From Acidimicrobiales bacterium (GTDB lineage Bacteria; Actinomycetota; Acidimicrobiia; Acidimicrobiales; SZUA-35), in the NCBI GenBank assembly GCA_020629695.1, contig JAHDCV010000010.1, forward strand, positions 1 to 58,107: a stretch of DNA of 58,107 nt, given 5' to 3'. A program made the translations under genes and the position numbers. Position 1 is the first letter of the stretch. Each line of letters begins with the position of its first letter. The notes under the pieces were generated by a model. The model was not told the DNA's origin. It saw only the letters and a program-made list of their open reading frames with translations, and searched no databases. Below, in pieces: positions 1,685 to 15,109 of this stretch.

Positions 1685-1732
1685 GGTAGGCCGCCCGGGT
1701 CTCGAACCCGGCACCTTGGGATTAAAAGTCCC
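1685..1732. repeat. attL: orphan 3' tRNA-Lys fragment
   Basis: These 48 bases are identical to 10621-10668. They comprise the complement of the tRNA 3' end, acceptor strand, T-arm and anticodon loop. Beyond base 1732 similarity to the tRNA stops, so this copy cannot encode a tRNA. It marks the left boundary of the element. Confidence 0.92.
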
Positions 1733-2139: not shown

Positions 2140-2529
2140 TCAGCCGGCGGGTGGGCGCCAGGCGGGTTCGATGCCGTGCTGTTCGAGCTGGCCGGTCAGG
2201 ACGGCCACGCCGTGACGGAGGTCGCCGACGGTGCGGTCTCGGGCGGCGCCGTCGTCCTCGAGCTGGCGGATCTTCGCTCGGAGCTGGTCGATCTCGGCGT
2301 TCATCGCCTGGCGCATCTCGGCGATCTCGGCCCGGGCGGCGTCGAGCTGGGTCTGGATGGGGTCGACGAGGCCGAGGGCGATGTCGGAGAACGCCTGGGC
2401 GGTGGCGGCGGCGTTGTTGTCGGCCTCGGTGTTGAGCTTCCGGCCTGCGGCGCGCCGGTTCCACCACGCTGCGAGTCCGGCGGTCGAGGCGAGGAGCCCG
2501 GCGATGATCTGGACGGCTCGGTCACCCAC
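2140..2529 (-). CDS. membrane-anchored coiled-coil protein, 129 aa
   Basis: It starts at GTG 2529. Residues about 5-25 form one hydrophobic helix ending in W-W-N-R-R, followed by a long Ala/Glu/Gln-rich helical region with heptads (I-A-E-M-R-Q-A-M, I-D-Q-L-R-A-K-I-R-Q-L-E). This single-TM plus coiled-coil layout is common among phage spanin-like or small accessory lysis proteins, but no specific family is recognised. It is the last gene of a four-gene minus-strand cassette (truncated amidase, two membrane proteins, this) and is followed by three hairpins. Confidence 0.7.
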   Translation of the reverse strand: MGDRAVQIIAGLLASTAGLAAWWNRRAAGRKLNTEADNNAAATAQAFSDIALGLVDPIQTQLDAARAEIAEMRQAMNAEIDQLRAKIRQLEDDGAARDRTVGDLRHGVAVLTGQLEQHGIEPAWRPPAG

Positions 2530-2538
2530 CGTGGGCCG

Positions 2539-2865
2539 TCAGTCCGTGGTGCGTCGTCGTGCGCCGGCCATGCCGTTCACGACCAGGGCGGTCATGAGGG
2601 CGACGTCGGCGAGGACGAGCGCGATGAACGCCGGCCGGAACCACTCGCGGGGGACGTCAGCGGCGCCGGCGAGGAGGAGGATCGCGTAGAGCACGGAGAA
2701 CACGACGTAGACGAGCGCCTTGGCCGCGAGGTACGTCATCGGTGATCGCCATCCGAGCGTCATCCCTCGAGCGTGGAAGAGGTGCGCAGTCGCGATCGTC
2801 GCGACGACGACGGCGACAGCGGAGGCGAGCGTGATCGGGAGGAGCACGTCGTCGAACACGGTCAC
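2539..2865 (-). CDS. small polytopic membrane protein, 108 aa (holin-like)
   Basis: GTG 2865 overlaps the stop of the preceding gene in a GTGA junction. Three hydrophobic segments are visible (about residues 8-28, 46-68 and 77-99) with a basic tail A-R-R-R. Length, hydrophobicity and position downstream of an amidase remnant fit a phage holin, but holins share little sequence, so function is inferred from context only. Confidence 0.7.
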   Translation of the reverse strand: MTVFDDVLLPITLASAVAVVVATIATAHLFHARGMTLGWRSPMTYLAAKALVYVVFSVLYAILLLAGAADVPREWFRPAFIALVLADVALMTALVVNGMAGARRRTTD

Positions 2866-3299
2866 GGGCGGGCCGCCCTCACGGTGCGGAGCCGGCTGAT
2901 GCGGTCGCCGGGTGCGAGCTCGTCGACGTCGACCTTGATCGACGGGAGCCGGGGTGCAAGCCAGTCAGCAGCGATCGTTCGCCACCAGCGCTTCTTGTGG
3001 GAGTCGTGCGCTCCGGTGATGGCGATGTTCGCGGCGACGTACAGGCCGGAGTAGACGCTGAGCACGGCGCCGATGGCGACCAGGTCGCCCTGGAGCACAC
3101 CGGCGGGGATACCGTCGATGACCCACCGAGCACCGATCGATGCGGCGGCGACGACGTGGGCGAACACGGAGCGGACGGCGGTCTTCACCTCGGGTGATGC
3201 GCCGCGCTCCGTGAAGGCGTCGACGAACACGGGGGTGATGTAGACGGCGACGATCGTGGTGATGGCCTGGGCGACGAGTTCGGGTGTGATCTCCATCAT
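2862..3299 (-). CDS. membrane protein, 145 aa (possible holin-type)
   Basis: ATG 3299 overlaps the stop of the upstream amidase fragment (ATGA). Hydrophobic helices occupy about residues 10-28, 45-65 and 75-98, followed by a basic segment (H-K-K-R-W-W-R) and a charged tail. It looks like part of a translationally coupled lysis cassette with the genes on either side. No conserved family motif is recognised. An alternative start at ATG 3296 is possible. Confidence 0.7.
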   Translation of the reverse strand: MMEITPELVAQAITTIVAVYITPVFVDAFTERGASPEVKTAVRSVFAHVVAAASIGARWVIDGIPAGVLQGDLVAIGAVLSVYSGLYVAANIAITGAHDSHKKRWWRTIAADWLAPRLPSIKVDVDELAPGDRISRLRTVRAARP

Positions 3300-3895
3300 C
3301 GAGCCCCGTTCGCCTTGGCGTACTCGAGCTCGGCCCGGATCTTGGCCTGCTTCGCGTTGCGGTCACCGGGCGTGTCGTTCCACACGCTGGTGAGCCACAC
3401 GTCGCCGGGCGGGTCCGGCTCGCGGTCGAGGACGTCGAGGTACGCCTGGCGCACGTTCGGGCCGGCCTCGGCGGCGAGCACGATCTGTCGGATGTCGGCC
3501 ATGGTGAACTCCTCCTCGGAGTCGTGGGCGGGTGGTGCGGGACGGATCACGATCGGTGCCGCGGGGCGGGCGTCGGTGACGAGGTCGCGGACCGGGCGGG
3601 TGAGGGTGTGGACGTCGATCTTCCGGGTGGTGAGCGACGCGTGATCGGTGCAGTGCTCGGGTCGGAGACCGGCGGAGTCGGCGAGGAGCCGCATGACGAG
3701 CGCGGCGGTGGGTTCGAACTCGGCGAGCCGCTGCAGGCCGTCGTCGGGGTGGTAGGCGAGCACGACCCCGAAGAAGTCCTGGTTCGAGTAGCTGCTGCGG
3801 TGCCACCGCCGCGGGCGGGCGTGTGGCCACTGGCCGGCGAGCACGGAGGCCTTCGCGGTGGTGGAGACCTTCCCGACTCCACCGGAGGAGCTGTC
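3296..3895 (-). pseudogene. N-terminally truncated phage-type N-acetylmuramoyl-L-alanine amidase
   Basis: The recognisable core runs from a G-x-G-K motif near 3880, through N-Q-D-F-F-G-V, to T-D-H-A-S-L-T-T-R-K-I-D, the second zinc-ligand region of Amidase_2/PGRP endolysins (H then RK-x-D). About the first 50 residues, which should carry the first zinc histidine, are absent, and the frame above about 3895 is only antisense to the ImmA-like gene. Codon bias is strong up to that point and then decays, marking a junction. A C-terminal segment begins at M-A-D-I-R-Q and follows a GAGGAGGAG tract, so that part could also be translated separately from ATG 3502. Catalysis is probably lost. Confidence 0.65.
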
Positions 3896-4213
3896 GGTGG
3901 CTCGTTCGCCGGCCGGCGCGTGATTCTGCTCGACACGAGCCTTTCGAGGGTCGAGCGGAAGTGCGCGCTGGCGCACGAGCTCGTGCACGTCCAGCGCGGT
4001 GGCGGGTCGTGCGACCCGTACCGGGAGAAGGAGGAACGGATCGTCGACCGCATCGTCGCCGAGCGCCTGGTCCCGCTCGGCGAGCTGATGGCGTTCTGCC
4101 ACGCCCGGGAGGTGGTCGAGCCGTGGGAAGTGGCCGAGCACTTCGACGTCACGGACGATGTCGCCCGGCTCGCTCTCGAGCGGCTGCAGGCGCCGGAGGA
4201 GTGGGCGGCGTGA
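3821..4213 (+). CDS. ImmA/IrrE-type zinc metallopeptidase, probably 5'-truncated
   Basis: The frame carries the ImmA/IrrE signature: R-V-I-L-L-D, then E-R-K-C-A-L-A-H-E-L-V-H with HExxH, a downstream E-K-E-E-R-I-V-D helix supplying the third ligand, and a C-terminal helical domain. ImmA-type peptidases typically cleave phage repressors. The first in-frame start is GTG 3821, but 3821 to about 3895 is antisense to the amidase remnant, so the native N-terminus was probably replaced by a rearrangement. GTG 3920 is the other option. No ImmR-type repressor is found next to it. The catalytic core looks intact. Confidence 0.65.
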   Translation: MWPLAGEHGGLRGGGDLPDSTGGAVGGSFAGRRVILLDTSLSRVERKCALAHELVHVQRGGGSCDPYREKEERIVDRIVAERLVPLGELMAFCHAREVVEPWEVAEHFDVTDDVARLALERLQAPEEWAA

Positions 4214-4711: not shown

Positions 4712-6151
4712 ATGAAGATTAGTTTCGCTTTAGTAGCGGTGGTCGCTGCGCTTGTGGTGGCGGGATTGCCAGCTGCTGGGTCTGCTGCGCAGGGCGAAGG
4801 CGCACGCGGCCTGGGTGCGGAATGCGCTGCCGTTCGACCGTCTGCGGCTGAGCCCCAGGGCCGGTTCCGGCAGGGTCTGGGGTTGCCTGCCACTCCGGCG
4901 GGCGATGTCTCTGAGGCGTTGCAGCAGACAGGTCTTCCCGTGACAGCAGCGGAGTTCGCCTTGATCGATCGTGCGTCTCTGGTGCGGGAGGAGGTGTCGG
5001 CGATGGATCTTCGTGTGACTGCCTCAGAGGTTCTGGGGGATGCGTTCATCGGGATTGCCTGGGAGGGCGCGCGTGGTTGGCTGGTGTTCTACGAGCCCGG
5101 CACAGTTAAGGGGGCGCCAGCTGCGCTGCGGAAGGCTCTGGGGCTAGAGAGCGGCCAGCTCCGCGTCGTGCCCGTTCCCGGCGGCGTGCCGGCGGTGCAG
5201 CACTCTCGGAATCTTGACTATGTGGTGTCGGTCCAGGAAGAGCTCGCTGAACTGGGCGCACCGAAGCACTCGCTCGACGAGCGGTGTGGCTTGCTTGAGA
5301 TCGGTGTGCTGTCCTCGGCGAATACTCGATCCGTTGAGGATCTCCTGCTGGAGGGCATCCCGAACAGGAACTGGTTCGAGCTGGTCGAGATCACGGAGGA
5401 GGACCTCCCGACCCCCGACAATCGAGGTCAGAGCGAGGCGGACTATGTCGGCGGGAAGAGGCTGCAGATCGCCTCGCAGCCGGCGTATTGCACGGCGAGT
5501 CTTGGCTTCTACAAGGACCTCCCTGGGGGCGGCCGTGAGTGGTGGGGCGTGACGGCAGCTCACTGCCTTCCAGATCAGCTGGCATACACATCGGGGGCCT
5601 TCAGAATCACAACGCAGCAGTGGCGGATCGGCGGGGTCGATATCGGCGTCGTTCCGGGCGGCACCGCTAACTACTACGTGTACGGCGGTCCGATGGATCT
5701 GGTCGTCACGCAACTCAACCGACCGGTCGTCGATCGGCACTACATCAGAGATGCCGCTGTCGACACCTTCACTGACCTCACGTGGTGGCAGTGGCATGTC
5801 AATCTTGACGCTGATGGCGACACGGTGTGTCAATCAGGTCAGGCGACGAACCAGATCCGATGCGGGTCGATCACAGATCGCAACGCCGGATATTGGCTCA
5901 ACTCCAACCAGTCGAAGATCGGAGTGGCGATCAACATCAACGGGATCCGCGAGGCTGAGTTCACCTCAACGACCCAAGGTGGCGACAGTGGCGGCTCCGT
6001 CTGGCATGTCCAGAGCTCCTCGACCTCGAACCTTGCTGGAGTGCATCACGGCAGCAACGACACATACTTCTACTACACGCACGCCTCTTACCTTCTGTCG
6101 ACGTTCGGACTGACATCCGTGGTCGAGTGCGATTGGGCTGGGACGTGCTGA
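4712..6151 (+). CDS. secreted trypsin-like (S1 family) serine protease with propeptide
   Basis: ATG 4712, with GAGGGG seven bases upstream, is preferred over GTG 4688. The protein has 479 residues with a signal peptide (hydrophobic residues about 4-27, Ala-rich cleavage region), an N-terminal region of about 230 residues that looks like a propeptide, and a chymotrypsin-fold domain. The triad is visible: His284 in V-T-A-A-H-C, Asp329 in P-M-D-L-V-V, Ser426 in G-G-D-S-G-G-S. Several Cys residues suggest disulfides. It is probably exported and self-activated. It is followed four bases later by an inhibitor-like lipoprotein. Codon use is less GC-biased than the chromosome, suggesting transfer. 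Confidence 0.88.
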   Translation: MKISFALVAVVAALVVAGLPAAGSAAQGEGARGLGAECAAVRPSAAEPQGRFRQGLGLPATPAGDVSEALQQTGLPVTAAEFALIDRASLVREEVSAMDLRVTASEVLGDAFIGIAWEGARGWLVFYEPGTVKGAPAALRKALGLESGQLRVVPVPGGVPAVQHSRNLDYVVSVQEELAELGAPKHSLDERCGLLEIGVLSSANTRSVEDLLLEGIPNRNWFELVEITEEDLPTPDNRGQSEADYVGGKRLQIASQPAYCTASLGFYKDLPGGGREWWGVTAAHCLPDQLAYTSGAFRITTQQWRIGGVDIGVVPGGTANYYVYGGPMDLVVTQLNRPVVDRHYIRDAAVDTFTDLTWWQWHVNLDADGDTVCQSGQATNQIRCGSITDRNAGYWLNSNQSKIGVAININGIREAEFTSTTQGGDSGGSVWHVQSSSTSNLAGVHHGSNDTYFYYTHASYLLSTFGLTSVVECDWAGTC

Positions 6152-6155
6152 GAGC

Positions 6156-6515
6156 ATGATTGGTCGTGTCCTCTTGGCTGCTGTCTTGTTGTGCACGGCT
6201 TGCACCTCAGCGAGCGAGTCGTCTTCCGAGGCCTCGACAACATCCGTCGAGCCGGCAACAACCGTGCCCTTGACGTCGTCAACGGTCCCGGTGCCGACAA
6301 CGATCGATATGGCTGCGTTCGAGGCTGCGGGCGAGAGCCGTGACTTCTGGGAGATGGTGGGTCTCGAGGAGGCCATCGTCGTCGATTGGGCAGAGCGGAG
6401 CGGGTTCGAGGAGTTCCTCGAGCCGGGTGACGTTGCCGTCGGGATCTTTGTGCCTCGGCGAATCCGTATACAGGTCGACGAGGACGGAATTGTGACTCGG
6501 GTGATGGCTGGCTGA
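6156..6515 (+). CDS. lipoprotein with I78/potato-inhibitor-I-like domain (candidate protease inhibitor)
   Basis: This 119-aa protein has a lipoprotein signal ending L-L-C-T-A-C (Cys16), a Ser/Thr/Pro linker to about residue 48, and a compact C-terminal domain. The domain pattern V-G-L-x2-A, helix, L-E-P-G-D, then P-R-R-I-R-I-Q-V-D-E-D-G-I-V-T-R-V and a terminal Gly matches the I78/potato inhibitor I fold, in which the loop before the R-I-R-I strand blocks serine proteases. The start codon lies four bases after the protease stop, so the two are one transcript. A surface-tethered inhibitor protecting the producer is the natural inference. Small domains of this kind are common in actinobacteria, so the match is moderate. 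Confidence 0.75.
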   Translation: MIGRVLLAAVLLCTACTSASESSSEASTTSVEPATTVPLTSSTVPVPTTIDMAAFEAAGESRDFWEMVGLEEAIVVDWAERSGFEEFLEPGDVAVGIFVPRRIRIQVDEDGIVTRVMAG

Positions 6516-6523
6516 ACGCGATT

Positions 6524-6557
6524 GAGCCCGGGCCGTTGAAAGGGGTGGCCCGGGCTC
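6524..6557 (+). terminator. terminator of the protease/inhibitor operon
   Basis: Arms GAGCCCGGGCC (6524-6534) and GGCCCGGGCTC (6547-6557) pair perfectly around a 12-base loop, nine bases after the inhibitor stop codon. Confidence 0.75.
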
Positions 6558-6719
6558 ATCGGTTGGTGCCGCCACGGTAGGACGCCGACCGACTGCTGGT
6601 CGATGGGTCGGGATCCCCGGACACCGGGCCGTTCGGCCTACGTGTCGGCGGATCGCGACGCGAGCTGAACCTTTGCGGAGGTAGTCCGCTGCGAGTCGGA
6701 TCTCGTGCGGACGTCGTGC

Positions 6720-7100
6720 CTACGTCAGCAAAGGATTTCTGATTCGCTTCGAGCGCTCCTCGGCGCGACGGTCGAGCTCGTCATCTATCGAGATTGGTTG
6801 TGGCCGATCTCCTGCCGGGAGGGCATCGATCAGTCCCGGCCGTCGGCGCCGAAGCTCGGAGAGGTACACGAGTGCCGAGCGGCGCGTTCGCTCGATGTCG
6901 TTGCGATCCAATTCATCGATGTGGCCGTCCTTCGCAAGGACGATCAGCGTGTCGATCACGTCGACGACCTGCTGCGTGAGATAGTCGCTCACGAGGTTGT
7001 CGTCGTAGTCCTCGAGAGGCCGGAGGTCGCTCATCTTGCTCGAGAGGTCCGTGAGGATCTCCAGCCAGATCGGGACACTGGGGCTATCGGCGTCGTTCAT
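6720..7100 (-). CDS. hypothetical acidic helical protein, 126 aa
   Basis: ATG 7100 is preferred over GTG 7106 because GGGAGGTGG lies directly upstream with correct spacing. The product is acidic and helical (Y-L-T-Q-Q-V-V-D-V-I-D-T-L-I-V-L), with a basic Arg-rich C-terminus (R-R-R-R-P, then S-K-R-I-R-N). It has no signal, TM or known domain. It is a separate minus-strand gene between the protease terminator and the GAF protein, so it is element cargo of unknown role. Confidence 0.6.
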   Translation of the reverse strand: MNDADSPSVPIWLEILTDLSSKMSDLRPLEDYDDNLVSDYLTQQVVDVIDTLIVLAKDGHIDELDRNDIERTRRSALVYLSELRRRRPGLIDALPAGDRPQPISIDDELDRRAEERSKRIRNPLLT

Positions 7101-7243
7101 GTCCACCTCCCTTGCTACGGCATGAGTGGCGAAAAACCTGACTCGGAATCAGCAAAGCAGGGCTCCTTGAGTAGGTGCCCCGAGGCCTCAACCACGGCCT
7201 GCGCTCCACACGCATCATGCGAGAGCTTGCCACACCCGGACGC

Positions 7244-7903
7244 TCAGTCAACATCGAACCGGAAGAGATCAATCTGCACACGGGACACGGCTCGCGCCAC
7301 GTCAACGAGGTCAGCTCGGATGCGATCTCTGTCAACAGTCGGTCCGACCTTGGCTGAACCGGAGACCACGGCCACCACCCGGCGGCGCGCATTCAGGCAG
7401 GGTGCAGCGACCACGATCTCGAGGTCCTCGTACTTCTCGATCTGGTCGGGTGAGAGGTTGAACTTGGCGTCCGTGAGCTCGTCTTGGCCGATTGCTACCT
7501 CAGACTCCTGGTTGGCCCACACGAACCCCACGCACCCCGTGCCGATCTCCCAATCGGTTCCGGGTGTTTGCCTGTCCTGGCTGTATGAGGGGATCAATCG
7601 CCCGGTCTTCTTGGAGAGCGAGTAAACCCGAAACTGGAGGCCGTGGAGAGCGCTCGTCTGCGGCACTGCGAATAGCGCATCCAGAAGCGCGACGGCGGCG
7701 TTCTTCCTCTCATCCTTCACCTTCCGTTCAAAGTCGAAGAAGAGGCTCATCACGCGGCGGAACTGGGCTCCGGCCGCCAGCTGGACCACGACGATCGCCA
7801 CGGCAGTGGCTCCGAACGCAATGAAGCGCACCCACTCCTGCGCCCACCAGTAGGCCGTTCGCTGAAGGCGGACAGAGGTGGACCCGTCCTCGCCGGGGGT
7901 CAC
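7244..7903 (-). CDS. membrane-anchored GAF-like sensor protein, 219 aa
   Basis: It starts at GTG 7903. One hydrophobic helix (about residues 24-45) follows a Trp-rich segment. After a charged linker helix (F-E-R-K-V-K-D-E-R-K), residues about 90-200 look like a GAF domain: R-V-Y-S-L, a G-x-G-C-V-G-F-V-W turn, D-L-E-I-V-V-A-A-P and V-V-A-V-V-S-G-S-A-K. No kinase, cyclase or effector domain follows, so it may sense a small ligand and act through a partner. The 54-aa TM protein upstream ends 18 bases before this start, indicating co-expression. Confidence 0.65.
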   Translation of the reverse strand: MTPGEDGSTSVRLQRTAYWWAQEWVRFIAFGATAVAIVVVQLAAGAQFRRVMSLFFDFERKVKDERKNAAVALLDALFAVPQTSALHGLQFRVYSLSKKTGRLIPSYSQDRQTPGTDWEIGTGCVGFVWANQESEVAIGQDELTDAKFNLSPDQIEKYEDLEIVVAAPCLNARRRVVAVVSGSAKVGPTVDRDRIRADLVDVARAVSRVQIDLFRFDVD

Positions 7904-7921
7904 GACCAGGGCGCTCGTCTC

Positions 7922-8086
7922 CTACGGGAGGATCGTGTAGGCCGCGGTCACCGTCAGGAACACGAGGGTCGGAAGGAACAGCGCCCATCGCGACCCCCGG
8001 ATCCGATCGACCTTCGGCACGACGGCTTGGCGCCAGAAGACCGTAAGGGCCAGTCGCGCCCGCTTGACTCGCTGCTTGCCCGGCAT
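7922..8086 (-). CDS. small single-TM protein, 54 aa
   Basis: ATG 8086 has a GAAGG-type ribosome binding site just upstream (8087-8095), and the frame ends at TAG 7924-7922. The peptide is basic at the N-terminus (M-P-G-K-Q-R-V-K-R-A-R) and ends with one hydrophobic helix (W-A-L-F-L-P-T-L-V-F-L-T-V-T-A-A-Y). It directly precedes the GAF membrane protein, with only 18 bases between, and follows the integrase stop by 27 bases. No family is recognised; it may be a membrane partner of the GAF protein. Confidence 0.55.
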   Translation of the reverse strand: MPGKQRVKRARLALTVFWRQAVVPKVDRIRGSRWALFLPTLVFLTVTAAYTILP

Positions 8087-8113
8087 CACCTTCACCCGCC
8101 TCGAACGACCGGG

Positions 8114-9355
8114 TCAAGATATCGGAGAGCCTTCGGATGATCGAGCACTGCTCGACTCGGCGACGAGGCGGCCGAGTTCGGTGCCGATCTGGTCGGCTGC
8201 GGCGTGCTGGGAGGCGTCGAGGGCGCCGATGTAGAAGCGCTCGGTAACGGCGGTCGAGTTGGTGTGGCCGAGCTGGTCGGCGAGTACCTTCGGTGAGACG
8301 CCGGCGTCGGCGCCGAGGGTGGCGGCGATGTGACGGAGCCCGTGGAGCCACACCTCGGAGTCGGCGATCCCGAGCCGTCGCCGGTCGCGGGTGATCTTGG
8401 TGGTGATCGAGTCGACGAACCACGGCTTGGTCGGGTCTCGTGGCGAGGGGAAGAGCCAGGCGTCGCCGGGGAGGCGGGCGTGTGGCATGCCGACCACGAG
8501 CCGGTGATCGGCGACTCGTTCGGTGAGGAGCCGCTCGAGGAGTTCGACGGCCATGGGGTCGAGGGCGACGGTGCGGGCTCGGCGGGCGGTCTTGGGTGCT
8601 TGGATGGCGCGGCCGGTCTGGGCGATCGAGCGGCGGACGTGGAGCCGTCGGTGTTCGAGGTCGATGTCGCCGGTCTGGAGTCCGGCGAGTTCGGAGCGGG
8701 CGAGGCCGGCGGATCCGGCGAGCCAGAGCATTGTGAACCACGAGACGCCTTGGGTCATGGCGTCGGCGAGGAACCGTGCGGTGGCGTTCCGGTCGGGCTG
8801 GGGTGCGGCGGGTGGGGTGATCTGGATGAGCGGGGCGAGGAACTCGACGTCGGTGATCTTCCCGTTGCGTCGGGCCCAGCGGAACACGGCTCGGACGATC
8901 CGGATGGTCTGGTTGATGGTGTTGGCGCTGAGGGGTTCGCCGGCGCGGTGGGCTCGTGTGAGTCGTGCGTCGCGGGTGAGCCAGTCGTACCACTCGGCCA
9001 TGGCGACGGTGTCGAGGTCGGCGAGCGGGCGTTGGCCGAGGTAGGGGACGACGTAGGCGCGGAGCTTCTGTTCGTAGCGGGTCCACGTGTCGGGGCGGAG
9101 CTTCTCGGTGGCTTGGTTCCACTCGAGGTAGTCGGCGACGAGGTGTTCGACGGTGGCGCCGGCGTGGCTGCGGCGCTGTCGGTTGGCCCAGGTTTCGGCG
9201 AGCTTGTCGGCTTCGGTCTTGGTGCGGGCGGTGATGGTGGTGGAGCGGCGCCGGTACTTCCCGGTGACGGGGTCCTTGCCGAGCGAGACGGTGGCGAGCC
9301 ACACACCCTTCCGGCCGTCGGGATGTGCCCGAAGCCCCCAGCCCTTACGTGGCAT
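8114..9355 (-). CDS. tyrosine recombinase / integrase
   Basis: This 413-aa protein has an N-terminal arm-binding type domain (K-G-V-W-L-A-T-V-S-L-G), a SAM-like core-binding domain (about residues 68-170) and a catalytic domain. Catalytic residues visible are Arg220 (G-L-A-R-S-E-L), H338-G-L-R341-H342, L-G-H in the box-2 region and the nucleophile Tyr375 (T-E-R-F-Y). It would catalyse integration at the tRNA-Lys 3' end using the 48-bp core. It overlaps the upstream pentapeptide gene by 11 bases, so the two are co-transcribed. No excisionase gene is recognised nearby. Confidence 0.95.
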   Translation of the reverse strand: MPRKGWGLRAHPDGRKGVWLATVSLGKDPVTGKYRRRSTTITARTKTEADKLAETWANRQRRSHAGATVEHLVADYLEWNQATEKLRPDTWTRYEQKLRAYVVPYLGQRPLADLDTVAMAEWYDWLTRDARLTRAHRAGEPLSANTINQTIRIVRAVFRWARRNGKITDVEFLAPLIQITPPAAPQPDRNATARFLADAMTQGVSWFTMLWLAGSAGLARSELAGLQTGDIDLEHRRLHVRRSIAQTGRAIQAPKTARRARTVALDPMAVELLERLLTERVADHRLVVGMPHARLPGDAWLFPSPRDPTKPWFVDSITTKITRDRRRLGIADSEVWLHGLRHIAATLGADAGVSPKVLADQLGHTNSTAVTERFYIGALDASQHAAADQIGTELGRLVAESSSARSSEGSPIS

Positions 9356-10532
9356 CGTCGCCTCGGTCGAGCCCTGTCGCTGTCTCGAGACCAGTTGCTC
9401 CGTCGAAGATGGCTCCCATCAAGTTGGCTTCATCAAAACGAGCGCCTCTCAGCTTGGCTTCAGTGAGCACTGCAAACCGAAGGTTTGCGTTCCAGAGGTT
9501 GGTCTCGGACAGATTCGATCTTGTGAGCACCGCATTCTGGAGGGCTGCCTGTGTGAGGATCGCAGCCTCTAGATCGGCCTCCCGTAGGTTGGCTTCCTTG
9601 AGGTTCGCTCCATCCAGCGAAGTGTTGGCTACTTGAGCCCAGCTGAGGTCGGCGCTCCAGAGGTTCGCCTGGGTGAAGTCCGCTTCCTGGAGGTTGGCGG
9701 CTTTGAGGTCTGCCCGAACAAAGTCGGCTGACTGGGCATCTGATTGGCGGAGATCGGCCTCCCAGAGCATGGCGCCTTGCAGCTTCGCCCCCGAGAGCTT
9801 TGCTGCTCGAAGGTCGGCCCTCCGGAGTTCGGCTCCTCGTAGATCCGCTGCCTGCAGGTCGGCCTCGCTGAGATTGGCGCCGTTCAGGTCTGCGTTGGAG
9901 AGGTTCACCCCGTGAAGGTCGAAGCCACGAGCTTGGACTCCGCGGAGTGAAACGCGAAGACCGAGACGGCCAAGCACTTGCAGGGCCGCTTCTCGATCTG
10001 CGGCTGGCTGGGGTTGGGCCCGTGCCTCTGGCTCGTTGAGGTCCTCCTGGTCGTCGTCTTGGACGAAGGCCTGGAGGACATCGCGCACCGTTACGGCGAA
10101 CCGGCTGGGAGCGTCCGATGCGAGCGCCTCGAGGGCGTAGACGCCCCCGATTCGGATTGCGGCAGCCTTGTTGCCGAGCTGCTCGACGGCTCTGGCGTAC
10201 CGGTCCGTCTGGTCGCCGGAGACCGCGACCTCGGCTTGGGTCTCCATGGCCCGGATACGCCGGTAGGAGAGCCACACGGCGAGCAGGCCGAGCACGCCGA
10301 GGCCGATTCGGAGACCGGTCTGCACGACGAAGATCCGAGCGTCGAGCGCAGTGCGGTCGACGACCTCACTCTGGGTGCCAGTGACGACGGCGTCACCGAC
10401 GAGCCACTCGGCGATCGCCGGAGCGAAGGCGATCGAGAGCCCGACGACGGCGCCGGCGCCGAGGATGATCCCGCCGCCACTGGCGACGTCCTTCCACCGG
10501 CTCGGTGCACCACGTCGTTGCGTCTCACCCAT
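9345..10532 (-). CDS. membrane-anchored pentapeptide-repeat protein, 395 aa
   Basis: Two TM helices (about residues 18-45 and 72-92) precede a cytosolic helical segment with R-Y-A-R-A-V-E-Q-L-G-N-K and I-R-I-G-G-V-Y-A-L-E-A-L, typical of a widespread family of membrane pentapeptide proteins. About 200 residues of A-(D/N)-L-x-x repeats follow (e.g. A-D-L-R-G, A-N-L-S-E), forming a right-handed quadrilateral helix. Its last 11 bases overlap the integrase start. The function of this family is unknown; DNA-mimic or scaffold roles are possible. It is the gene closest to the right att site. Confidence 0.85.
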   Translation of the reverse strand: MGETQRRGAPSRWKDVASGGGIILGAGAVVGLSIAFAPAIAEWLVGDAVVTGTQSEVVDRTALDARIFVVQTGLRIGLGVLGLLAVWLSYRRIRAMETQAEVAVSGDQTDRYARAVEQLGNKAAAIRIGGVYALEALASDAPSRFAVTVRDVLQAFVQDDDQEDLNEPEARAQPQPAADREAALQVLGRLGLRVSLRGVQARGFDLHGVNLSNADLNGANLSEADLQAADLRGAELRRADLRAAKLSGAKLQGAMLWEADLRQSDAQSADFVRADLKAANLQEADFTQANLWSADLSWAQVANTSLDGANLKEANLREADLEAAILTQAALQNAVLTRSNLSETNLWNANLRFAVLTEAKLRGARFDEANLMGAIFDGATGLETATGLDRGDDAT

Positions 10533-10559
10533 GGGTGGATTCTAGACAACCGCGCTGTC

Positions 10560-10580
10560 TTCGCGTAGATTTCGCGTATG
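10560..10580 (+). repeat. candidate arm-type integrase site, right
   Basis: TTCGCGTAGATTTCGCGTATG matches the 1835-1855 site at 19 of 21 positions in the same orientation. It lies 40 bases inside the right core and 28 bases upstream of the pentapeptide gene start, so integrase binding could also affect transcription of its own operon. Confidence 0.5.
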
Positions 10581-10620
10581 ACGCCGCTGCGCGATTGGCC
10601 GATTCGGTGGTGTTTGTCCT

Positions 10621-10668
10621 GGTAGGCCGCCCGGGTCTCGAACCCGGCACCTTGGGATTAAAAGTCCC
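10621..10668. repeat. attR core within tRNA-Lys
   Basis: This copy of the 48-bp direct repeat forms the 3' part of the intact tRNA-Lys gene. The match to 1685-1732 begins at 10621 (10620 is T, 1684 is C) and ends at 10668. Confidence 0.92.
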
Positions 10669-10696
10669 CTGCTCTAGCCAGATGAGCTAGCGGCCC
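10623..10696 (-). tRNA. tRNA-Lys (TTT anticodon)
   Basis: Reading the minus strand, acceptor GGGCCGC pairs with GCGGCCT. The D-arm GCTC/GAGC, an anticodon arm with loop C-TTT-AA, and T-arm CCGGG-TTCGAGA-CCCGG are all present. The discriminator A and CC follow. The anticodon stem ends in a G-A mismatch. Its 3' part is the integration core of the adjacent element. Confidence 0.96.
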
Positions 10697-10769
10697 ACCG
10701 GCGAGGCTACCGGCCCACGGTCGCACCGGTTCGTGCCCCGGCGTCGCCCGACGGCCGTTGGCTGGCAAC

Positions 10770-11927
10770 ATGAAGGCCGTGTCCCGCCGTCCCCATTCGA
10801 CCGCCCCGTTCGGATCCTCCGTTTCGCGGGTGGTTGCGCTCGTCGTGTTGGTGCTGGGGGCGGCCTGCACCGAAGTCGGCGACCCCGTGATCGGGTCGGT
10901 GACCGCGACGACGGTGGTCCGGGTCGTCGATGGCTCCGACGCCGGGGCCCTCGAGGCCGAAGTCGCCGTGGGTCCGACCGCGACGACGATCTTCAGCCCC
11001 CGCGCCGACCCGGACTACGTGCCCACGCTGCTCGTCACCGCGGGCGGCACGGTGTTCCAGGTGGACGATGCGACGATCGCACCCCTCGTCGACGCCGACT
11101 CGCTCCGGGTCCTCGATGCCGCCGACGACCTGAATGGTGGCCTCGTCGCCGAGACCTCGTCCGACGTGTCCGGTTCGACGATCGAATGGTTCGCCTCGGG
11201 TGGCACGAGCTTCGCCCGAGTCGACGCCACCGGCGGCGGTCTGCTCGACGTCACCTACGCCGACGGGAGCCCAGAAGCGCTCGTCCTCCTCGACGACGGC
11301 GTCGAACGGGTGGAACGCATCTCGCTGGTCTCGACGGTCCGCACACCGCTGGCCCCCGTCGGCGACGGGGAGACGTTGCTCGACGTGTCGGCGTCGTCGG
11401 GTCGGTATCTGCTGGTGACCGCCGACCAGGCCTGCGGTGGCCTGCGCTTCCTCGACGCGAGCGGCGATGAACTGAATCTCGTCGGCCCGCCGGCACCCGA
11501 GTGCCCCGTGCCCCGCCGGCCCGCCATCGGACTCGCGGCACTCAGCCCCGACGGCGACGCCGTCGCCTACACCGAGCTCACCTATCGTTCGGATGGGCTC
11601 GTGACCTCGACCGACGTCGTGATCTGGGAACTCGGGCAGGACACCGAACTCGCCCGGGTGACCGTCGGCGGCGACGGCGAGACCGTGCGTGATCTGGCCT
11701 TCGACGGCCAGCGTGTCGCGATCCTGCGGACCGATGTCACCGAAGCCGACGGTGATGTGGCCGCGGTCGAGCGTGATGTGGTGGAGCTCTACGACCCGGC
11801 TGGTGGCGCCGAGCTCGTGTCGTCGGTGCCGCTGGCCGATGCGACCGCCATCCGCTTCGCCCGGCTCCCCGTCGCGGTCAGCTTCACCGACACCCCCATC
11901 GCCGAGGCGGGCACCGACGATGGCTAG
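10770..11927 (+). CDS. secreted lipoprotein, propeller-like, 385 aa
   Basis: ATG 10770 is chosen over the TTG at 10758. The N-terminus is basic, then hydrophobic (V-V-A-L-V-V-L-V-L-G-A-A-C), a lipobox with the acylated Cys near residue 33. The mature part is acidic and rich in repeated strands of the type L-S-P-D-G-D-A-V-A-Y and D-L-A-F-D-G-Q-R-V-A, suggesting a beta-propeller. No specific family is recognised. It is the first chromosomal gene right of the tRNA, and its last bases overlap a 55-aa ORF. Confidence 0.7.
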   Translation: MKAVSRRPHSTAPFGSSVSRVVALVVLVLGAACTEVGDPVIGSVTATTVVRVVDGSDAGALEAEVAVGPTATTIFSPRADPDYVPTLLVTAGGTVFQVDDATIAPLVDADSLRVLDAADDLNGGLVAETSSDVSGSTIEWFASGGTSFARVDATGGGLLDVTYADGSPEALVLLDDGVERVERISLVSTVRTPLAPVGDGETLLDVSASSGRYLLVTADQACGGLRFLDASGDELNLVGPPAPECPVPRRPAIGLAALSPDGDAVAYTELTYRSDGLVTSTDVVIWELGQDTELARVTVGGDGETVRDLAFDGQRVAILRTDVTEADGDVAAVERDVVELYDPAGGAELVSSVPLADATAIRFARLPVAVSFTDTPIAEAGTDDG

Positions 11928-12087
11928 CCTCGTCCGGGTGAACATCCCCCAGGTGCCCACCGATGCCGTCGAGGCCGTCGATCTGATCGGAACCGAAGAG
12001 CGTGATCTGCCGACGCTCCAGGACCTCGATGCGCTCGTGGCCGAGCTCGACGAGCTGGACCGCCGCCTGGCCGAGGTGGACGACTGA
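11920..12087 (+). CDS. small acidic helical protein, 55 aa
   Basis: ATG 11920 overlaps the stop of the lipoprotein gene by eight bases; GTG 11938 is an alternative start. The peptide has a polar N-terminus (V-N-I-P-Q-V-P) and an acidic amphipathic C-terminal helix (L-V-A-E-L-D-E-L-D-R-R-L-A-E-V). Codon bias is strong and the overlap suggests coupling. No family is known to me. Confidence 0.5.
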   Translation: MASLVRVNIPQVPTDAVEAVDLIGTEERDLPTLQDLDALVAELDELDRRLAEVDD

Positions 12088-12090
12088 CGA

Positions 12091-12594
12091 TCAGTCGTCC
12101 GGTTCCATCGCTTTGGCGATCAGGTAGCCGCGCGCTCGCTCGGTGCGCGGATACCGGTGCACGATGGCCCAGAACTCGGGGCCGTGTCCGGCGACGTCGA
12201 GGTGGGCGAGTTCGTGCACGATGACGTAGTCGAGCACCCAACCGGGCATTCCCGCGAGGCGGTCCGAGATCCTGATGTCCCCGGTCGACGGTGTGCAGCT
12301 ACCCCATCGCCCCGACTGATTCGAGACCCAGCGGATCGAGGTCGGCGACCGTAACCCGTGGCGACGAGCGAGTGTCGAGGCCCGCACGTCGAGATCGACG
12401 GCCTCGGAACGGTGGCGCCGCTCGAACTTGGCGACCATGTCGGAGACCAGCTCGGACTCCCGTCGGCGACCGAGGCCGGCGGGTACGCGGACGACGAGCT
12501 CGCCGTCGACCAGGCGTGCGCTGACGGTCTTCTTGCGGCGCGCCGAACGGATCACGACGACCGGCGGTGTGGGGTTCGCCGGTGCGCGGGTCAC
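12091..12594 (-). CDS. YgjP/DUF45-type zinc metallopeptidase-like protein
   Basis: GTG 12594 overlaps the TGA of the upstream phosphatase gene in a GTGA junction, giving 167 residues. Family motifs are visible: R-W-G-S-C-T-P (the W-G-S-C box), then I-V-H-E-L-A-H-L with HExxH, and G-H-G-P-E-F-W supplying the third zinc ligand. This is shorter than typical 230-aa YgjP proteins, but the core is complete. Targets in bacteria are unknown. It forms a two-gene operon with the histidine phosphatase and converges on the 55-aa gene. Confidence 0.85.
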   Translation of the reverse strand: MTRAPANPTPPVVVIRSARRKKTVSARLVDGELVVRVPAGLGRRRESELVSDMVAKFERRHRSEAVDLDVRASTLARRHGLRSPTSIRWVSNQSGRWGSCTPSTGDIRISDRLAGMPGWVLDYVIVHELAHLDVAGHGPEFWAIVHRYPRTERARGYLIAKAMEPDD

Positions 12595-13202
12595 AGGATC
12601 GAACCATCCGCCGGTGGCGGTGTCGCGACCAACTCGATCCGCTCGCCGAGGTGCATCCCCCCGTCGGGTGCGACCGTCACGACCCGACCACCGAGGTTGG
12701 GCACCCGGCCGCCGTCGGCGCCCAGGTGTCGTTCGAGATGTCGGATGACGCCGCCATGGCAGACGACGAGGACGGTCGCTCCGGCCATCGAGGTCGCGAC
12801 GGCGGTCAGCGAGACGAGTACCCGTTCGAGGAAGACGTCCTCCGGCTCGGCATCGGTCGGCCACTCATGACGGCCGATCGCACCCGGGGCGATCGCCTCG
12901 ATCTCGGCGGTGGTGAGACCCGACCACGAACCGATTTCGCGCTCGCGGAGACCGTCGACGGTGATGATCGGCCCGATGCCGAGCCCGGTCGCGAGGATCT
13001 CGGCCGTCTCGTGGGCCCGGAGCTGGGGACTCGCGACGACCGCATCGACGTCGCCGAGGACCCGACCGGCTTCGAAGGCCTGATCCCGGCCGAGCTCGGA
13101 CAACGACGGATCGGCCTGGCCCTGCCATCGACCGACGGCATTCCACTCGGACTGGCCGTGGCGGACGAGGAACAGCGTGGTCACCGGACGCACGCTACTC
13201 AT
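12591..13202 (-). CDS. histidine phosphatase family protein (phosphoglycerate mutase-like)
   Basis: This 203-aa protein starts with the R-H-G motif (L-V-R-H-G-Q-S-E-W-N) carrying the phosphorylated histidine. It has A-S-P-Q-L-R-A-H-E-T-A, L-R-E-R-E-I-G-S-W and the second catalytic His in V-V-C-H-G-G-V. It belongs to the broad branch that includes cobalamin and acid phosphatases; the substrate cannot be read from sequence. It is transcribed divergently from moaD with 32 bases between starts, and the downstream metallopeptidase overlaps it. Confidence 0.9.
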   Translation of the reverse strand: MSSVRPVTTLFLVRHGQSEWNAVGRWQGQADPSLSELGRDQAFEAGRVLGDVDAVVASPQLRAHETAEILATGLGIGPIITVDGLREREIGSWSGLTTAEIEAIAPGAIGRHEWPTDAEPEDVFLERVLVSLTAVATSMAGATVLVVCHGGVIRHLERHLGADGGRVPNLGGRVVTVAPDGGMHLGERIELVATPPPADGSIL

Positions 13203-13234
13203 GGCGGCTGACAGCGGCGGTTAGGGTTTCGTGT

Positions 13235-13471
13235 ATGGCAACGCTCCGCCTCTTCGCCCAGGCCAGGGAAGCCGCCGGCACGGCCAAGGCGGAGTTCGAT
13301 GCGACGACCGTCGGTGAGGTCCTCGATGCGGCAGCCGACGAATTCGGCTCCGACTTCGTGGCCATCCTCGCCGGGTCGAAGGTCTGGCTGAACGGGGACC
13401 CGGCCACCCGCGAACAGGCGGTGAGCGGGCGCGACGAGGTCGCCGTCCTCCCGCCCGTGTCCGGCGGATGA
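13235..13471 (+). CDS. moaD: MoaD/ThiS-type sulfur carrier protein
   Basis: This 78-aa ubiquitin-like protein ends in V-S-G-G, the C-terminal Gly-Gly that is thiocarboxylated. The fold pattern is typical of MoaD (L-R-L-F-A-Q-A-R-E-A-A-G at the start, G-R-D-E-V-A-V-L-P-P near the end). It would donate sulfur for molybdopterin synthesis, but no other molybdenum cofactor genes are in the window, so another sulfur-carrier role is possible. Its stop overlaps the next start (ATGA). Confidence 0.85.
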   Translation: MATLRLFAQAREAAGTAKAEFDATTVGEVLDAAADEFGSDFVAILAGSKVWLNGDPATREQAVSGRDEVAVLPPVSGG

Positions 13472-14508
13472 CCGACGACGAACACGGCACGGCGCCGATC
13501 GAGCACGCTCCGACATCAGCAGAGCCCGATCCGCTGGTGGTGCACGGCCTGGCCCCACCGGACGAGGGTTGGCCCGACGACGGATGGGAAGCCTCGGTGA
13601 CCGGAGAGCTCGCCGACCTCGGCCAGCTGGACACGACCAGGTCGACCGTGTTGGCCGGAGCACCTCTCGCCTTCGACGAGGAGCAGGGCCCGAATCCGCT
13701 CCAGAAGGTCCGAGACGCCCGCCGGAGGTCGGCCGAAGGGCGCTATCTCAAGCGTCAGCGCCGCTGGGAGACCCAGCGCTACGCCGTGCCCTACGACGTC
13801 GCGGGGCCGAAGGTCACGCTCGGTGTCATCTGGTTCGTGCTGCTCATGGCGAGCCTCCGCTACGGCAGCTGGCTCGCGTTGCTCACGCTGGTCGTGGCCG
13901 CCATGATCGCGGGTCTCCAGACGGGGTTCGCGTGGTCCCGGCACGAACTCTCCGACCGCCGCATGACGGCGATCGCCGCGCTCGTCGTCGCTGCCGCCGG
14001 CTTCGGTCAACGGCTCGGACTCGGTGCCGTGCTCATCGTCGCCGCCCTCGGACTCGCCGCCTACGCCGTCGTCACGGTCGGCACCACCGCCTCGGGCACT
14101 CGGTTCGCCGAGACCCTGATCCGATCCTCCCTCCCCGCGGGTCTCGCCGCCGGTTCGTTGCTCGCGCTCCGCGTCGACGAGCCGGGTGCGTTCCTCGCCG
14201 TGGTCGCACTCGTCAGTGCCTACGAGACGGGCGACTTCCTGATCGGTTCGGGTTCACCGAACGCCATCGAGGGCCCAGTGGCCGGTCTCGTGGCCATGGC
14301 GGTGATCGGCTACGGGTTCACGGTGTTCCCGCCCGACCCGTTCACGTCGACGTCGATGCCCGCATTCGTCCTGCTCGCGGCGATCGGCGCGGTGCTCGGG
14401 CCCGTCGCGGCGTCGGCCATCCTGCCCCGGGGGATCGCCTGGGCCCCGGGCCTTCGCCGCCTCGACTCCCACCTCCTGACGGCACCGATGTTCCTGCTGC
14501 TCACCTGA
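13468..14508 (+). CDS. CdsA-like polytopic membrane protein
   Basis: The 346-aa protein has a charged N-terminal cytosolic region of about 115 residues and then about eight hydrophobic helices. Near the C-terminus Y-E-T-G-D-F-L-I-G-S-G followed by N-A-I-E-G-P-V-A-G resembles the CdsA signature (S...D...G...SP-K-T-x-E-G), but the usual K-T pair and downstream acidic residues are missing. It may be a degenerate or neofunctionalised CDP-diglyceride synthase relative. Start ATG 13468 overlaps the moaD stop. Confidence 0.65.
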   Translation: MTDDEHGTAPIEHAPTSAEPDPLVVHGLAPPDEGWPDDGWEASVTGELADLGQLDTTRSTVLAGAPLAFDEEQGPNPLQKVRDARRRSAEGRYLKRQRRWETQRYAVPYDVAGPKVTLGVIWFVLLMASLRYGSWLALLTLVVAAMIAGLQTGFAWSRHELSDRRMTAIAALVVAAAGFGQRLGLGAVLIVAALGLAAYAVVTVGTTASGTRFAETLIRSSLPAGLAAGSLLALRVDEPGAFLAVVALVSAYETGDFLIGSGSPNAIEGPVAGLVAMAVIGYGFTVFPPDPFTSTSMPAFVLLAAIGAVLGPVAASAILPRGIAWAPGLRRLDSHLLTAPMFLLLT

Positions 14509-14578
14509 CAGGGTGGGGCGAATCGGTCGTCCGGGACGCGCCGCGGCCGTCGCCCCGTGCTGCCGGTACATTGGTCGG

Positions 14579-15109
14579 GTGATTCCTGAGCTCGATGCCC
14601 TCCTCGCCGACTCCGACGCCTCGGCACTGGCCGACTGGCCGATGGATCGGCTCCGTGCCGTGCGGGCCGACTGTGCGGAGGGCGAGACCGCCGTGTCGTT
14701 CGCCCGTCGTCTCTCCCAGGGCCGGCTCGACATCGTCGGACACGAGGCTCGGCGCCGCCAGGGCACGGCCGCCGGTGATGTGAACGAGCTGCTGTTCGAG
14801 CTGCCGGACATCCTCACCGACGGGGTCGGTGGTGCCGCCGGGACACGCCGTGTGACGGTGGAGGATCCGGGGGCGATCGCCGAGGCGCTCGTGTCGGAAC
14901 TCGATGGCATCGCGAGCCCGTCCGATCTGGCCGGTGTGAGCGACCTGACCGATGATCGACTGGCCGCGCTGATCGCGTCCCTCGGGAACTTCGAGCAGGC
15001 GTTGTCGAGCATCCGTCGCTCGTTGTTCGATCGCATCGACGATCTCCAGGGTGAGATCGCTCGTCGCTACCGCGACGGCGAAGCCTCCGTCGACTCGCTG
15101 CTGAGCTGA
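14579..15109 (+). CDS. RsiG-like c-di-GMP-binding anti-sigma factor
   Basis: GTG 14579 gives 176 residues and fits homologous starts better than upstream codons. Residues 36-51 match the RsiG c-di-GMP motif E-x3-S-x2-R-x3-Q-x3-D exactly (E36, S40, R43, Q47, D51), within L-R-A-V-R-A-D-C...Q-G-R-L-D-I. A second helix has E139, S143, R146, F150, D154, the same spacing but with Phe replacing Gln. In Streptomyces RsiG uses c-di-GMP to sequester the sigma factor WhiG. No WhiG gene is in this window. It is followed nine bases later by an XRE regulator. Confidence 0.85.
   Translation: MIPELDALLADSDASALADWPMDRLRAVRADCAEGETAVSFARRLSQGRLDIVGHEARRRQGTAAGDVNELLFELPDILTDGVGGAAGTRRVTVEDPGAIAEALVSELDGIASPSDLAGVSDLTDDRLAALIASLGNFEQALSSIRRSLFDRIDDLQGEIARRYRDGEASVDSLLS

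What the first reader, a model, noticed from the sequence alone, without database searches (positions are those of the whole stretch)
4712..6515. Secreted serine protease paired with a lipoprotein inhibitor as element cargo
A trypsin-fold protease (triad His284/Asp329/Ser426) is followed four bases later by a lipoprotein whose C-terminal domain matches the I78/potato-inhibitor-I pattern, sharing one promoter-like site and one strong terminator. A surface-tethered inhibitor next to an exported protease looks like a self-protection (toxin/immunity-like) pair on a mobile element; I know of no described system with this layout.
Basis: partly seen in the sequence, partly recalled or inferred. Interest (0 to 1): 0.7.

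Follow-up and report, generated by a model that had tools for sequence, protein, structure and literature searches.

The report
Mobile protease with its own inhibitor
A small mobile DNA element in a bacterial genome carries an exported protein-cutting enzyme next to a small exported protein that looks built to block it, and distant relatives of the pair sit on other kinds of mobile DNA, which suggests a travelling enzyme-and-safety-catch (or weapon-and-shield) module.

Summary
In detail: 4712-6151 encodes an exported S1-like serine protease (His284/Asp329/Ser426) and 6156-6515, four bases on, a small exported, probably membrane-anchored protein. Its I78/potato-inhibitor matches are below Pfam's cut-offs, but the predicted fold matches the eglin c/CI-2 family alone. 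The protease's N-domain resembles the alpha-lytic protease pro region. Both lie in an 8,984-bp element bounded by a 48-bp repeat of tRNA-Lys.

New here: the pairing recurs in five diverged lineages (proteases 21-39%, inhibitors 15-34% identical) and three gene arrangements, and is repeatedly mobile: a tRNA-Lys integrative element (window), a complete Tn3-family transposon with 5-bp target duplication, a transposase-less (perhaps Tn3-derived) element with 131-bp inverted repeats and 5-bp duplication, and a 6.4-kb block 99.9% identical between two genera. A same-genus genome keeps the inhibitor (dN/dS about 0.08 in the domain) but only the last ~25 codons of the protease. Linked inhibitors vary in loop length; unlinked ones hardly do.

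I read it as a mobile protease with cognate envelope protection. Toxin use is plausible, unproven. Cysteine-protease/inhibitor pairs on Bacteroides mobile elements are published, so this is a new variant of a known kind.

The parts
4712..6151 (+). S1-like serine protease gene, 479 aa, exported, probably a zymogen
   Evidence: ORF; profile of 7 relatives matches S1 structures; no Pfam hit for the window protein itself
4916..5416 (+). N-terminal domain (about residues 69-235) resembling the alpha-lytic protease pro region
   Evidence: top 3 rows of VIA (Z 8.5, 8.3, 7.6; next, unrelated, 6.7) on a low-confidence model; relative in G450 matches PF02983 below cut-off
5447..6148 (+). catalytic domain; His284 codon 5561-5563, Asp329 5696-5698, Ser426 5987-5989
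6156..6515 (+). inhibitor gene, 119 aa, exported, imperfect lipobox (Cys16)
6300..6512 (+). C-terminal domain with predicted eglin c/CI-2 fold
   Evidence: AF2 model and fold searches
6411..6458 (+). predicted protease-binding loop, variable in length among linked inhibitors
   Evidence: partly the low-confidence stretch of the model
6524..6557 (+). GC-rich hairpin after the inhibitor gene, no T-run
1685..1732 (.). 48-bp direct repeat, left end of the element (copy of the tRNA-Lys 3' part)
10621..10668 (.). 48-bp direct repeat, right end, inside tRNA-Lys
10620..10696 (-). tRNA-Lys(TTT), integration site
8114..9355 (-). tyrosine integrase of the element
   Evidence: PF00589 55.5 bits, PHROG integrase
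3524..4213 (+). ImmA/IrrE-type (M78) metallopeptidase on the element
   Evidence: PF06114 25.9 bits over cut-off 22, phrog_87
2140..3299 (-). three small genes at the left end, one with weak matches to phage families including a 'hol-like' one

Best explanation
This is a mobile two-gene module: an exported S1-like protease made as a zymogen with an alpha-lytic-type pro region, and a cognate eglin c/CI-2-fold inhibitor that is exported and held at the cell envelope. Shown: the genes, their recurrent linkage, carriage by several elements; predicted: the inhibitor fold and the pro region. Inferred: the released mature protease attacks proteins outside the producer (other cells or food); the anchored inhibitor binds active enzyme at the producer's own surface by a substrate-like loop and so protects the carrier. 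An element that brings both genes gives a new host the enzyme and the protection at once, which would explain why they travel together and why the inhibitor can outlive the protease.
For: Linkage: 6 of 16 distinct protease loci have an I78/CI-2-like gene beside them, in five lineages and three arrangements. Independent check: a profile of 20 unlinked I78-like domains alone, run on 1,619 distinct frames of the window and the protease-bearing loci, has the linked inhibitors as its seven best rows (51.9 to 9.0 bits); with each lineage left out of training in turn, that lineage is still found at E 4e-17 (G450), 1.6e-8 (G030), 4.5e-5 (G036), 4.1e-5 (G372/G245) and 8.4e-4 (window; G014 3.7e-5). Fold. 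Protease family. Pro region. Mobility. Orphan inhibitor under constraint. Loop diversification.
Against: 10 of the 16 protease loci, mostly the more distant ones, show no such neighbour. A model made from the first four lipoproteins scored the G372/G245 partner (10.6 bits) no better than an unlinked lipoprotein fetched for its similarity (L005, 10.5 bits); only G450 (16.7 bits) stood clear. Protease and inhibitor distances do not co-vary over five pairs (Mantel r -0.03, 71 of 120 permutations as high). That all four broken pairs are broken in the protease is no more than gene length predicts (probability 0.41). Pfam I78/potato-I cut-offs not met. AF2 failed on the catalytic domain (pLDDT under 50). 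The window lipobox is imperfect. No binding, inhibition or killing data.
Confidence: 0.62

Rival explanations
1. Selfish toxin-immunity element: the protease is a proteolytic bacteriocin that kills or lyses neighbours lacking the element, and the anchored inhibitor is the immunity protein; the pair spreads because it penalises non-carriers.
For: Carried by different mobile elements; inhibitor retained without the protease on an att-bounded stretch in G014, and an unlinked I78-like gene in G036 that is most like the G030 inhibitor (36%); diversified loop in linked inhibitors.
Against: No killing data; no delivery domain seen; breakage pattern not significant; an ordinary digestive protease would need the same shield.
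Confidence: 0.3
2. The protease is a nutritional or colonisation exoenzyme (a travelling ecological trait) and the inhibitor only prevents self-damage; no competition between cells is involved.
For: Signal-like N-terminus and an alpha-lytic-type pro region, as in secreted exoproteases (the comparison with exoproteases is recalled); the Bacteroides pairs are discussed in terms of virulence and self-protection.
Against: Does not by itself explain the retained inhibitor in G014.
Confidence: 0.33
3. The inhibitor is aimed at foreign proteases (of predators, hosts or rival bacteria), not at its neighbour; the two genes are a combined attack/defence cargo.
For: I78-like matches (E<=0.01) occur in 36 of 397 genomes, one of them elsewhere in the window's own genome (G000:C23), and 0 of the 26 loci L048-L073 had an S1-like frame by a crude motif test, which also missed the known G030 case because its flank is cut; no co-divergence.
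Against: Linkage kept in five lineages and three gene orders is hard to explain without interaction; loops of linked inhibitors differ in length from the nearly uniform loops of unlinked ones.
Confidence: 0.15
4. The small protein assists folding, activation or retention of the protease rather than protecting the cell.
For: Immediately downstream in the window and G036.
Against: The protease appears to have its own pro region; divergent and convergent arrangements; predicted inhibitor fold.
Confidence: 0.07
5. Chance adjacency of two cargo genes.
For: I78-like domains are not rare.
Against: Five diverged lineages; rough chance per locus about 1e-4, from 46 match rows in 397 genomes at an assumed 3.7 Mb each.
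Confidence: 0.02

Closest known systems
Bacteroides C10 proteases (Bfp/Btp) with staphostatin-like inhibitors (Bfi/Bti), PMC2873492 and PMC3462683
   Same: Exported protease with pro region next to a small exported inhibitor, either side of the protease gene; bfp1 and bfp4 co-transcribed with inhibitor genes; bfp4 on a conjugative-transposon-like insertion, bfp3 on an excising prophage at a tRNA; two B. thetaiotaomicron inhibitors predicted lipoproteins; self-protection proposed (passages)
   Different: Cysteine (papain-like) protease and staphostatin-like inhibitor instead of S1-like protease and CI-2-like fold; no mobile element found for the B. thetaiotaomicron pairs; mobility of the bfp4 insertion not established; no Tn3-type carriers in the passages seen
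Staphopain/staphostatin and SpeB/Spi
   Same: Protease and dedicated inhibitor genes adjacent and co-transcribed (as stated in PMC3462683)
   Different: Cysteine proteases; inhibitors thought to act in the cytoplasm; not presented there as mobile cargo
Protealysin/emfourin
   Same: Protease with an inhibitor gene beside it (recalled; of PMC9505478 only the listing and start of the abstract were seen)
   Different: Metalloprotease, intracellular
Serralysin with its periplasmic inhibitor (Inh/AprI); streptogrisins and SSI (all recalled, no call)
   Same: Secreted protease with an envelope or secreted inhibitor in the producer
   Different: Other protease or inhibitor folds; not known to me as element cargo
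Alpha-lytic protease
   Same: S1-like catalytic domain by profile and a pro region of similar predicted fold
   Different: Window protease gets no Pfam match and has an inhibitor gene beside it
Eglin c, CI-2, AFUEI (potato inhibitor I / I78)
   Same: Predicted fold
   Different: Sequence below family cut-offs; exported with an N-terminal anchor-like segment; loop shorter than in the unlinked I78-like domains compared

Membership tests
Potato inhibitor I / I78 fold | Eglin c/CI-2 fold | tested here: met
   AF2 model (pLDDT 69.8, pTM 0.58): Foldseek rows 1-49 of the 50 shown are this family by title, row 50 unrelated with probability 0.06; no row has E<=0.001. VIA rows 1-48 of 50 are this family by title (Z 6.3-3.2), row 49 unrelated Z 2.5; all Z are under 8
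Pfam PF11720 I78 / PF00280 potato_inhibit | Curated score cut-off | tested here: not met
   15.9 of 23.6 and 15.2 of 24.5 bits; best linked relative 16.8 of 24.5, G036 and G030 none. Not filed as a member; said only to have the fold
Potato inhibitor I / I78 | Inhibition of a serine protease through the loop | not testable with these tools
   no assay; the loop holds the low-confidence part of the model
S1 (chymotrypsin-like) proteases | His-Asp-Ser triad in order with TAAHC and GDSGG motifs | tested here: met
S1 (chymotrypsin-like) proteases | Profile similarity to solved S1 proteases | tested here: met
   A5 profile: Der p 3 E 1.3e-8, factor IX 2.5e-8, alpha-lytic protease 3.4e-6
Pfam PF00089 Trypsin | Curated score cut-off | tested here: not met
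   0 families for the window protein; the relative in G037 passes, 22.0 over 20.6 bits. Hence 'S1-like'
Alpha-lytic-type pro region | Pro-region fold before the catalytic domain | tested here: inconclusive
   three pro-region structures head the VIA list on a low-confidence model; PF02983 18.1 of 23.4 bits in G450, none in the window protein
Bacterial lipoprotein | Lipobox before the acylated Cys (pattern recalled) | tested here: not met
   window and G014 have Cys at -3 and fail; G036, G030 and G450 inhibitors fit; G372 has a hydrophobic segment without Cys. Called 'probably anchored', not 'a lipoprotein'
tRNA-integrating element (window) | Integrase, tRNA and matching att repeats | tested here: met
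   excision not tested
Tn3-family transposon (G030 pair) | Tn3 transposase, resolvase, terminal inverted repeats, 5-bp duplication | tested here: met
   PF01526 443 bits, PF00239 144.8 bits; 56-bp, 91% inverted repeats; GTAGA both sides
Toxin-immunity pair | Effector harms non-carriers and partner neutralises it | not testable with these tools
   needs assay; only linkage and unlinked inhibitors were seen
Bacteroides C10 protease / staphostatin-like pairs | Cysteine protease with staphostatin-like inhibitor | tested here: not met
   serine protease motifs and CI-2-like fold

The most novel reading that the evidence does not exclude
A class of mobile proteolytic bacteriocins: alpha-lytic-type exoproteases that act as element-borne weapons, each with a private envelope-anchored eglin-like immunity protein whose binding loop diversifies with the protease, swapped between tRNA elements, Tn3 transposons and transposase-less cassettes, and leaving orphan immunity genes behind.
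Probability: 0.27. Interest if true: 0.82.

Novelty: new variant of a known kind. Interest (0 to 1): 0.62.

Why it matters
The protease-plus-private-inhibitor pairs I know of are mostly of cysteine and metalloproteases. Here an S1-like protease of the alpha-lytic kind is coupled to an eglin/CI-2-like inhibitor in a group whose named records include uncultured Acidimicrobiales (record titles), and the couple is cargo of several different mobile elements. It gives a testable case of whether exoproteases act as transferable weapons with immunity, and a natural series of inhibitor loops of different length for studying specificity.

Tried and rejected
No match to the window protease in phages, plasmids or IMG/VR contigs, to the inhibitor in plasmids or phages, or to the G030 pair in plasmids. 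PADLOC: 0 families for 7 element proteins. The first genome-contig scan found nothing; the second, by profile, 5 loci. Of the 17 match rows outside G000 and G014, 11 lie within residues 1-67 (signal and linker); L005 and L009 were read and had no protease beside them. The A4 profile has no I78-type match among PDB sequences, so the fold claim rests on the model.

Preferential loss of the protease: four broken proteases (G014 deletion, G036 frameshift and stop, G245 apparent ISL3-type insertion, G372 internal deletion) and no broken inhibitor look striking, but gene length alone gives 0.41, so I do not lean on it. Co-divergence was tested and not seen.

Rows dropped before counts: the loop comparison used 20 unlinked domains; L060 (looks I78-like, left out by my script), L064 and L065 were excluded, weaker rows fell under the script's threshold, and match rows without a fetched locus were not used. 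G245 and G372 count as one lineage (6,369 bp at 99.92%); cross-binning of two metagenome assemblies is not excluded. G245's protease lies on two contigs that overlap by 141 identical bases; that they adjoin is inferred. The unlinked set was gathered with a profile of the linked ones, which may favour uniform loop lengths and helps.

Full report
What is there. The window protein itself has no Pfam match and only weak single-sequence matches to trypsins (best E 0.012), but a profile of seven relatives matches solved S1 proteases (Der p 3 E 1.3e-8, factor IX, trypsin, alpha-lytic protease 3.4e-6), and the relative in G037 passes Pfam's Trypsin cut-off. AlphaFold2 failed on the catalytic domain (pLDDT under 50) and gave a low-to-moderate model of the N-terminal domain, whose three best structural matches are all the pro region of alpha-lytic protease (Z 8.5, 8.3, 7.6; next, unrelated, 6.7, whose notes warn that Z near 8 can be unspecific). 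So it is most likely a secreted zymogen of the alpha-lytic kind.

Four bases on, 6156-6515 encodes a 119-aa protein: hydrophobic N-terminus ending in CTAC, a Ser/Thr-rich linker and a 71-residue domain. Pfam I78 and potato inhibitor I both match its last third, below cut-off. The modelled domain (pLDDT 69.8) matches this fold alone: Foldseek rows 1-49 of the 50 shown are, by title, CI-2, eglin c, plant inhibitors and AFUEI, row 50 is unrelated with probability 0.06; no row reaches E 0.001. VIA agrees (rows 1-48, Z 6.3 to 3.2). The lipobox of the window protein is imperfect, while the linked proteins of G036, G030 and G450 have a regular one (pattern recalled). No sigma-70-like promoter was found, and the hairpin after the gene is stable but without a T-run.

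The element. A perfect 48-bp repeat (1685-1732 and 10621-10668) copies the 3' part of tRNA-Lys(TTT) at 10620-10696 and bounds 8,984 bp that hold a tyrosine integrase, a pentapeptide-repeat gene, an M78 (ImmA-like) peptidase and small genes with weak phage matches. In the same-genus genome G014 one contig holds three copies of that sequence; one interval carries an 81%-identical inhibitor with, just upstream and in frame, only the last ~25 codons of the protease. No other match to the window protease was found in G014 (81% complete). Apart from att copies and scraps under 60 bp, the 444 bp ending exactly at the inhibitor's stop codon are the only DNA that contig shares with the window at E<=1e-3, and the integrases are 31% identical: the cassette sits in different elements. 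dN and dS between the two inhibitor genes are 0.10 and 0.51 overall, 0.05 and 0.60 in the domain, 0.19 and 0.41 in signal and linker (NG86); the loss cannot be dated, so this shows constraint on the inhibitor but not for how long without the protease.

Linkage elsewhere. Protein and profile searches (39 family genomes; 395 and 390 class; 397 order; 50 and 1 of other families; 281 phylum; overlapping sets; plus a pattern scan of genome contigs) gave 16 distinct protease loci. Six have an I78/CI-2-like gene beside the protease: the window; G036, abutting downstream; G030, divergent; G450, directly downstream; G372 and G245, convergent, these two being one lineage. Ten do not: G037, G631, G657, G133, G353, G097, G245:C140, G300 and G062 (flanks scanned with the inhibitor models; loci of about 2.5 to 3.7 kb) and G758 (read by eye). 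The ten are more distant from the window protease than most of the six; G450 is distant too and is paired. Pair members are 21-39% (proteases) and 15-34% (inhibitors) identical between lineages.

Is the neighbour really the same kind of gene each time? A model from the first four lipoproteins scored the G450 partner 16.7 bits and the G372/G245 partner 10.6 bits; other frames of the whole window reached 6.2, but an unlinked lipoprotein fetched for similarity (L005) reached 10.5. A stricter test supports it: a profile of 20 unlinked I78-like domains alone, run on 1,619 distinct frames of the window and protease-bearing loci, gave the linked inhibitors as its seven best rows (the seven printed; 51.9 to 9.0 bits, the weakest E 0.11), and leaving each lineage out of a joint profile still finds it at E 4e-17 to 8.4e-4.

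Mobility elsewhere. In G030 the pair, a resolvase and a Tn3 transposase (443 bits) lie between 56-bp, 91% inverted repeats starting GGGG, with GTAGA on both sides: a complete Tn3-family transposon whose cargo is this pair. In G036 the pair and one other long frame lie between 131-bp, 98% inverted repeats starting GGGG, with TCTTG on both sides; no transposase-like frame was seen among those listed. G372 and G245, of different genera, share 6,369 bp at 99.92%; 47-bp repeats there look by eye like a tRNA 3' end, though ARAGORN finds no tRNA gene on those contigs. G450 shows no mobile gene by eye on its 8.2-kb contig.

Loop. Between the conserved helix Ala and the Arg after the loop, the five linked lineages span 23, 26, 27, 30 and 30 residues, while 20 unlinked I78-like domains span 27 (18) or 28 (2). 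Mean pairwise identity in the loop is 0.18 for linked against 0.41 for unlinked, while helix (0.33, 0.39) and strands (0.34, 0.43) differ less. This fits inhibitors adapted to private targets; the profile-based choice of the unlinked set may exaggerate it. I78-like matches not beside such proteases are common: 36 of 397 genomes have a match at E<=0.01, linked ones and some doubtful rows included. The fold alone does not imply the pair.

Mechanism. Best reading: the protease is secreted as a zymogen, matures outside, and the anchored inhibitor occupies active enzyme at the carrier's own envelope; the two move together because an element is tolerated only with both. Whether the benefit is killing of non-carriers or digestion is open. 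Against over-reading: no co-divergence (r -0.03), and the excess of broken proteases is explained by length.

Known systems. The nearest are Bacteroides C10 proteases with staphostatin-like inhibitors. [quoted passage not shown] thetaiotaomicron inhibitors are predicted lipoproteins (no mobile element found for those), and that self-protection is proposed. The idea is thus known; the protease and inhibitor folds, the host group and the Tn3-type carrier are new here as far as I could search. Searches for I78 or potato-inhibitor proteins paired with bacterial proteases or mobile elements listed no such pair by title and start of abstract (one search returned the Bacteroides papers; open-licence papers only).

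Noticed in passing
L026 (G014:C8) 4723-14953: Three copies of the tRNA-Lys 3' sequence in one contig, as in a tandem array of small integrative elements; one interval carries the orphan inhibitor and an integrase.
   Followed up: partly
L041, L042, L078 (G631, G657, G353): More distant S1-like proteases each followed by a large protein with a Cys-containing signal-like N-terminus, not I78-like; perhaps another protease-partner pair.
   Followed up: no
L096 820-2427 (G758): S1-like protease followed directly by a small exported-looking protein with a weak Ig-like match (below cut-off); perhaps a different inhibitor type.
   Followed up: partly
L086 4434-5281 (G450) and L079 600-1442 (G097): Two distant S1-like proteases both have nearby genes that look alike (acyl-carrier-like plus acetyltransferase-like by eye; no Pfam match for the one tried).
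   Followed up: no
L048-L071, e.g. L050 2-1677: I78-like domains with a nearly uniform loop at the C-termini of larger proteins, one with a PKD domain, in genomes of the same order.
   Followed up: partly
L085 3837-4178 (G036:C166): Unlinked I78-like gene most similar to the Tn3-borne G030 inhibitor (36%), no protease in the stretch read.
   Followed up: partly
G000:C23:37720-37893: A second, unlinked I78-like match (E 0.00117) elsewhere in the window's own genome; not fetched.
   Followed up: no
window 9345-10532: Pentapeptide-repeat gene (PF00805 152.6 bits) between the integrase and tRNA-Lys, overlapping the integrase start.
   Followed up: no
L030 102-1268 and L088 4100-4300 (G245): ISL3-type transposase gene next to the truncated N-terminus of the protease reading frame; the protease seems cut by the insertion.
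   Followed up: partly
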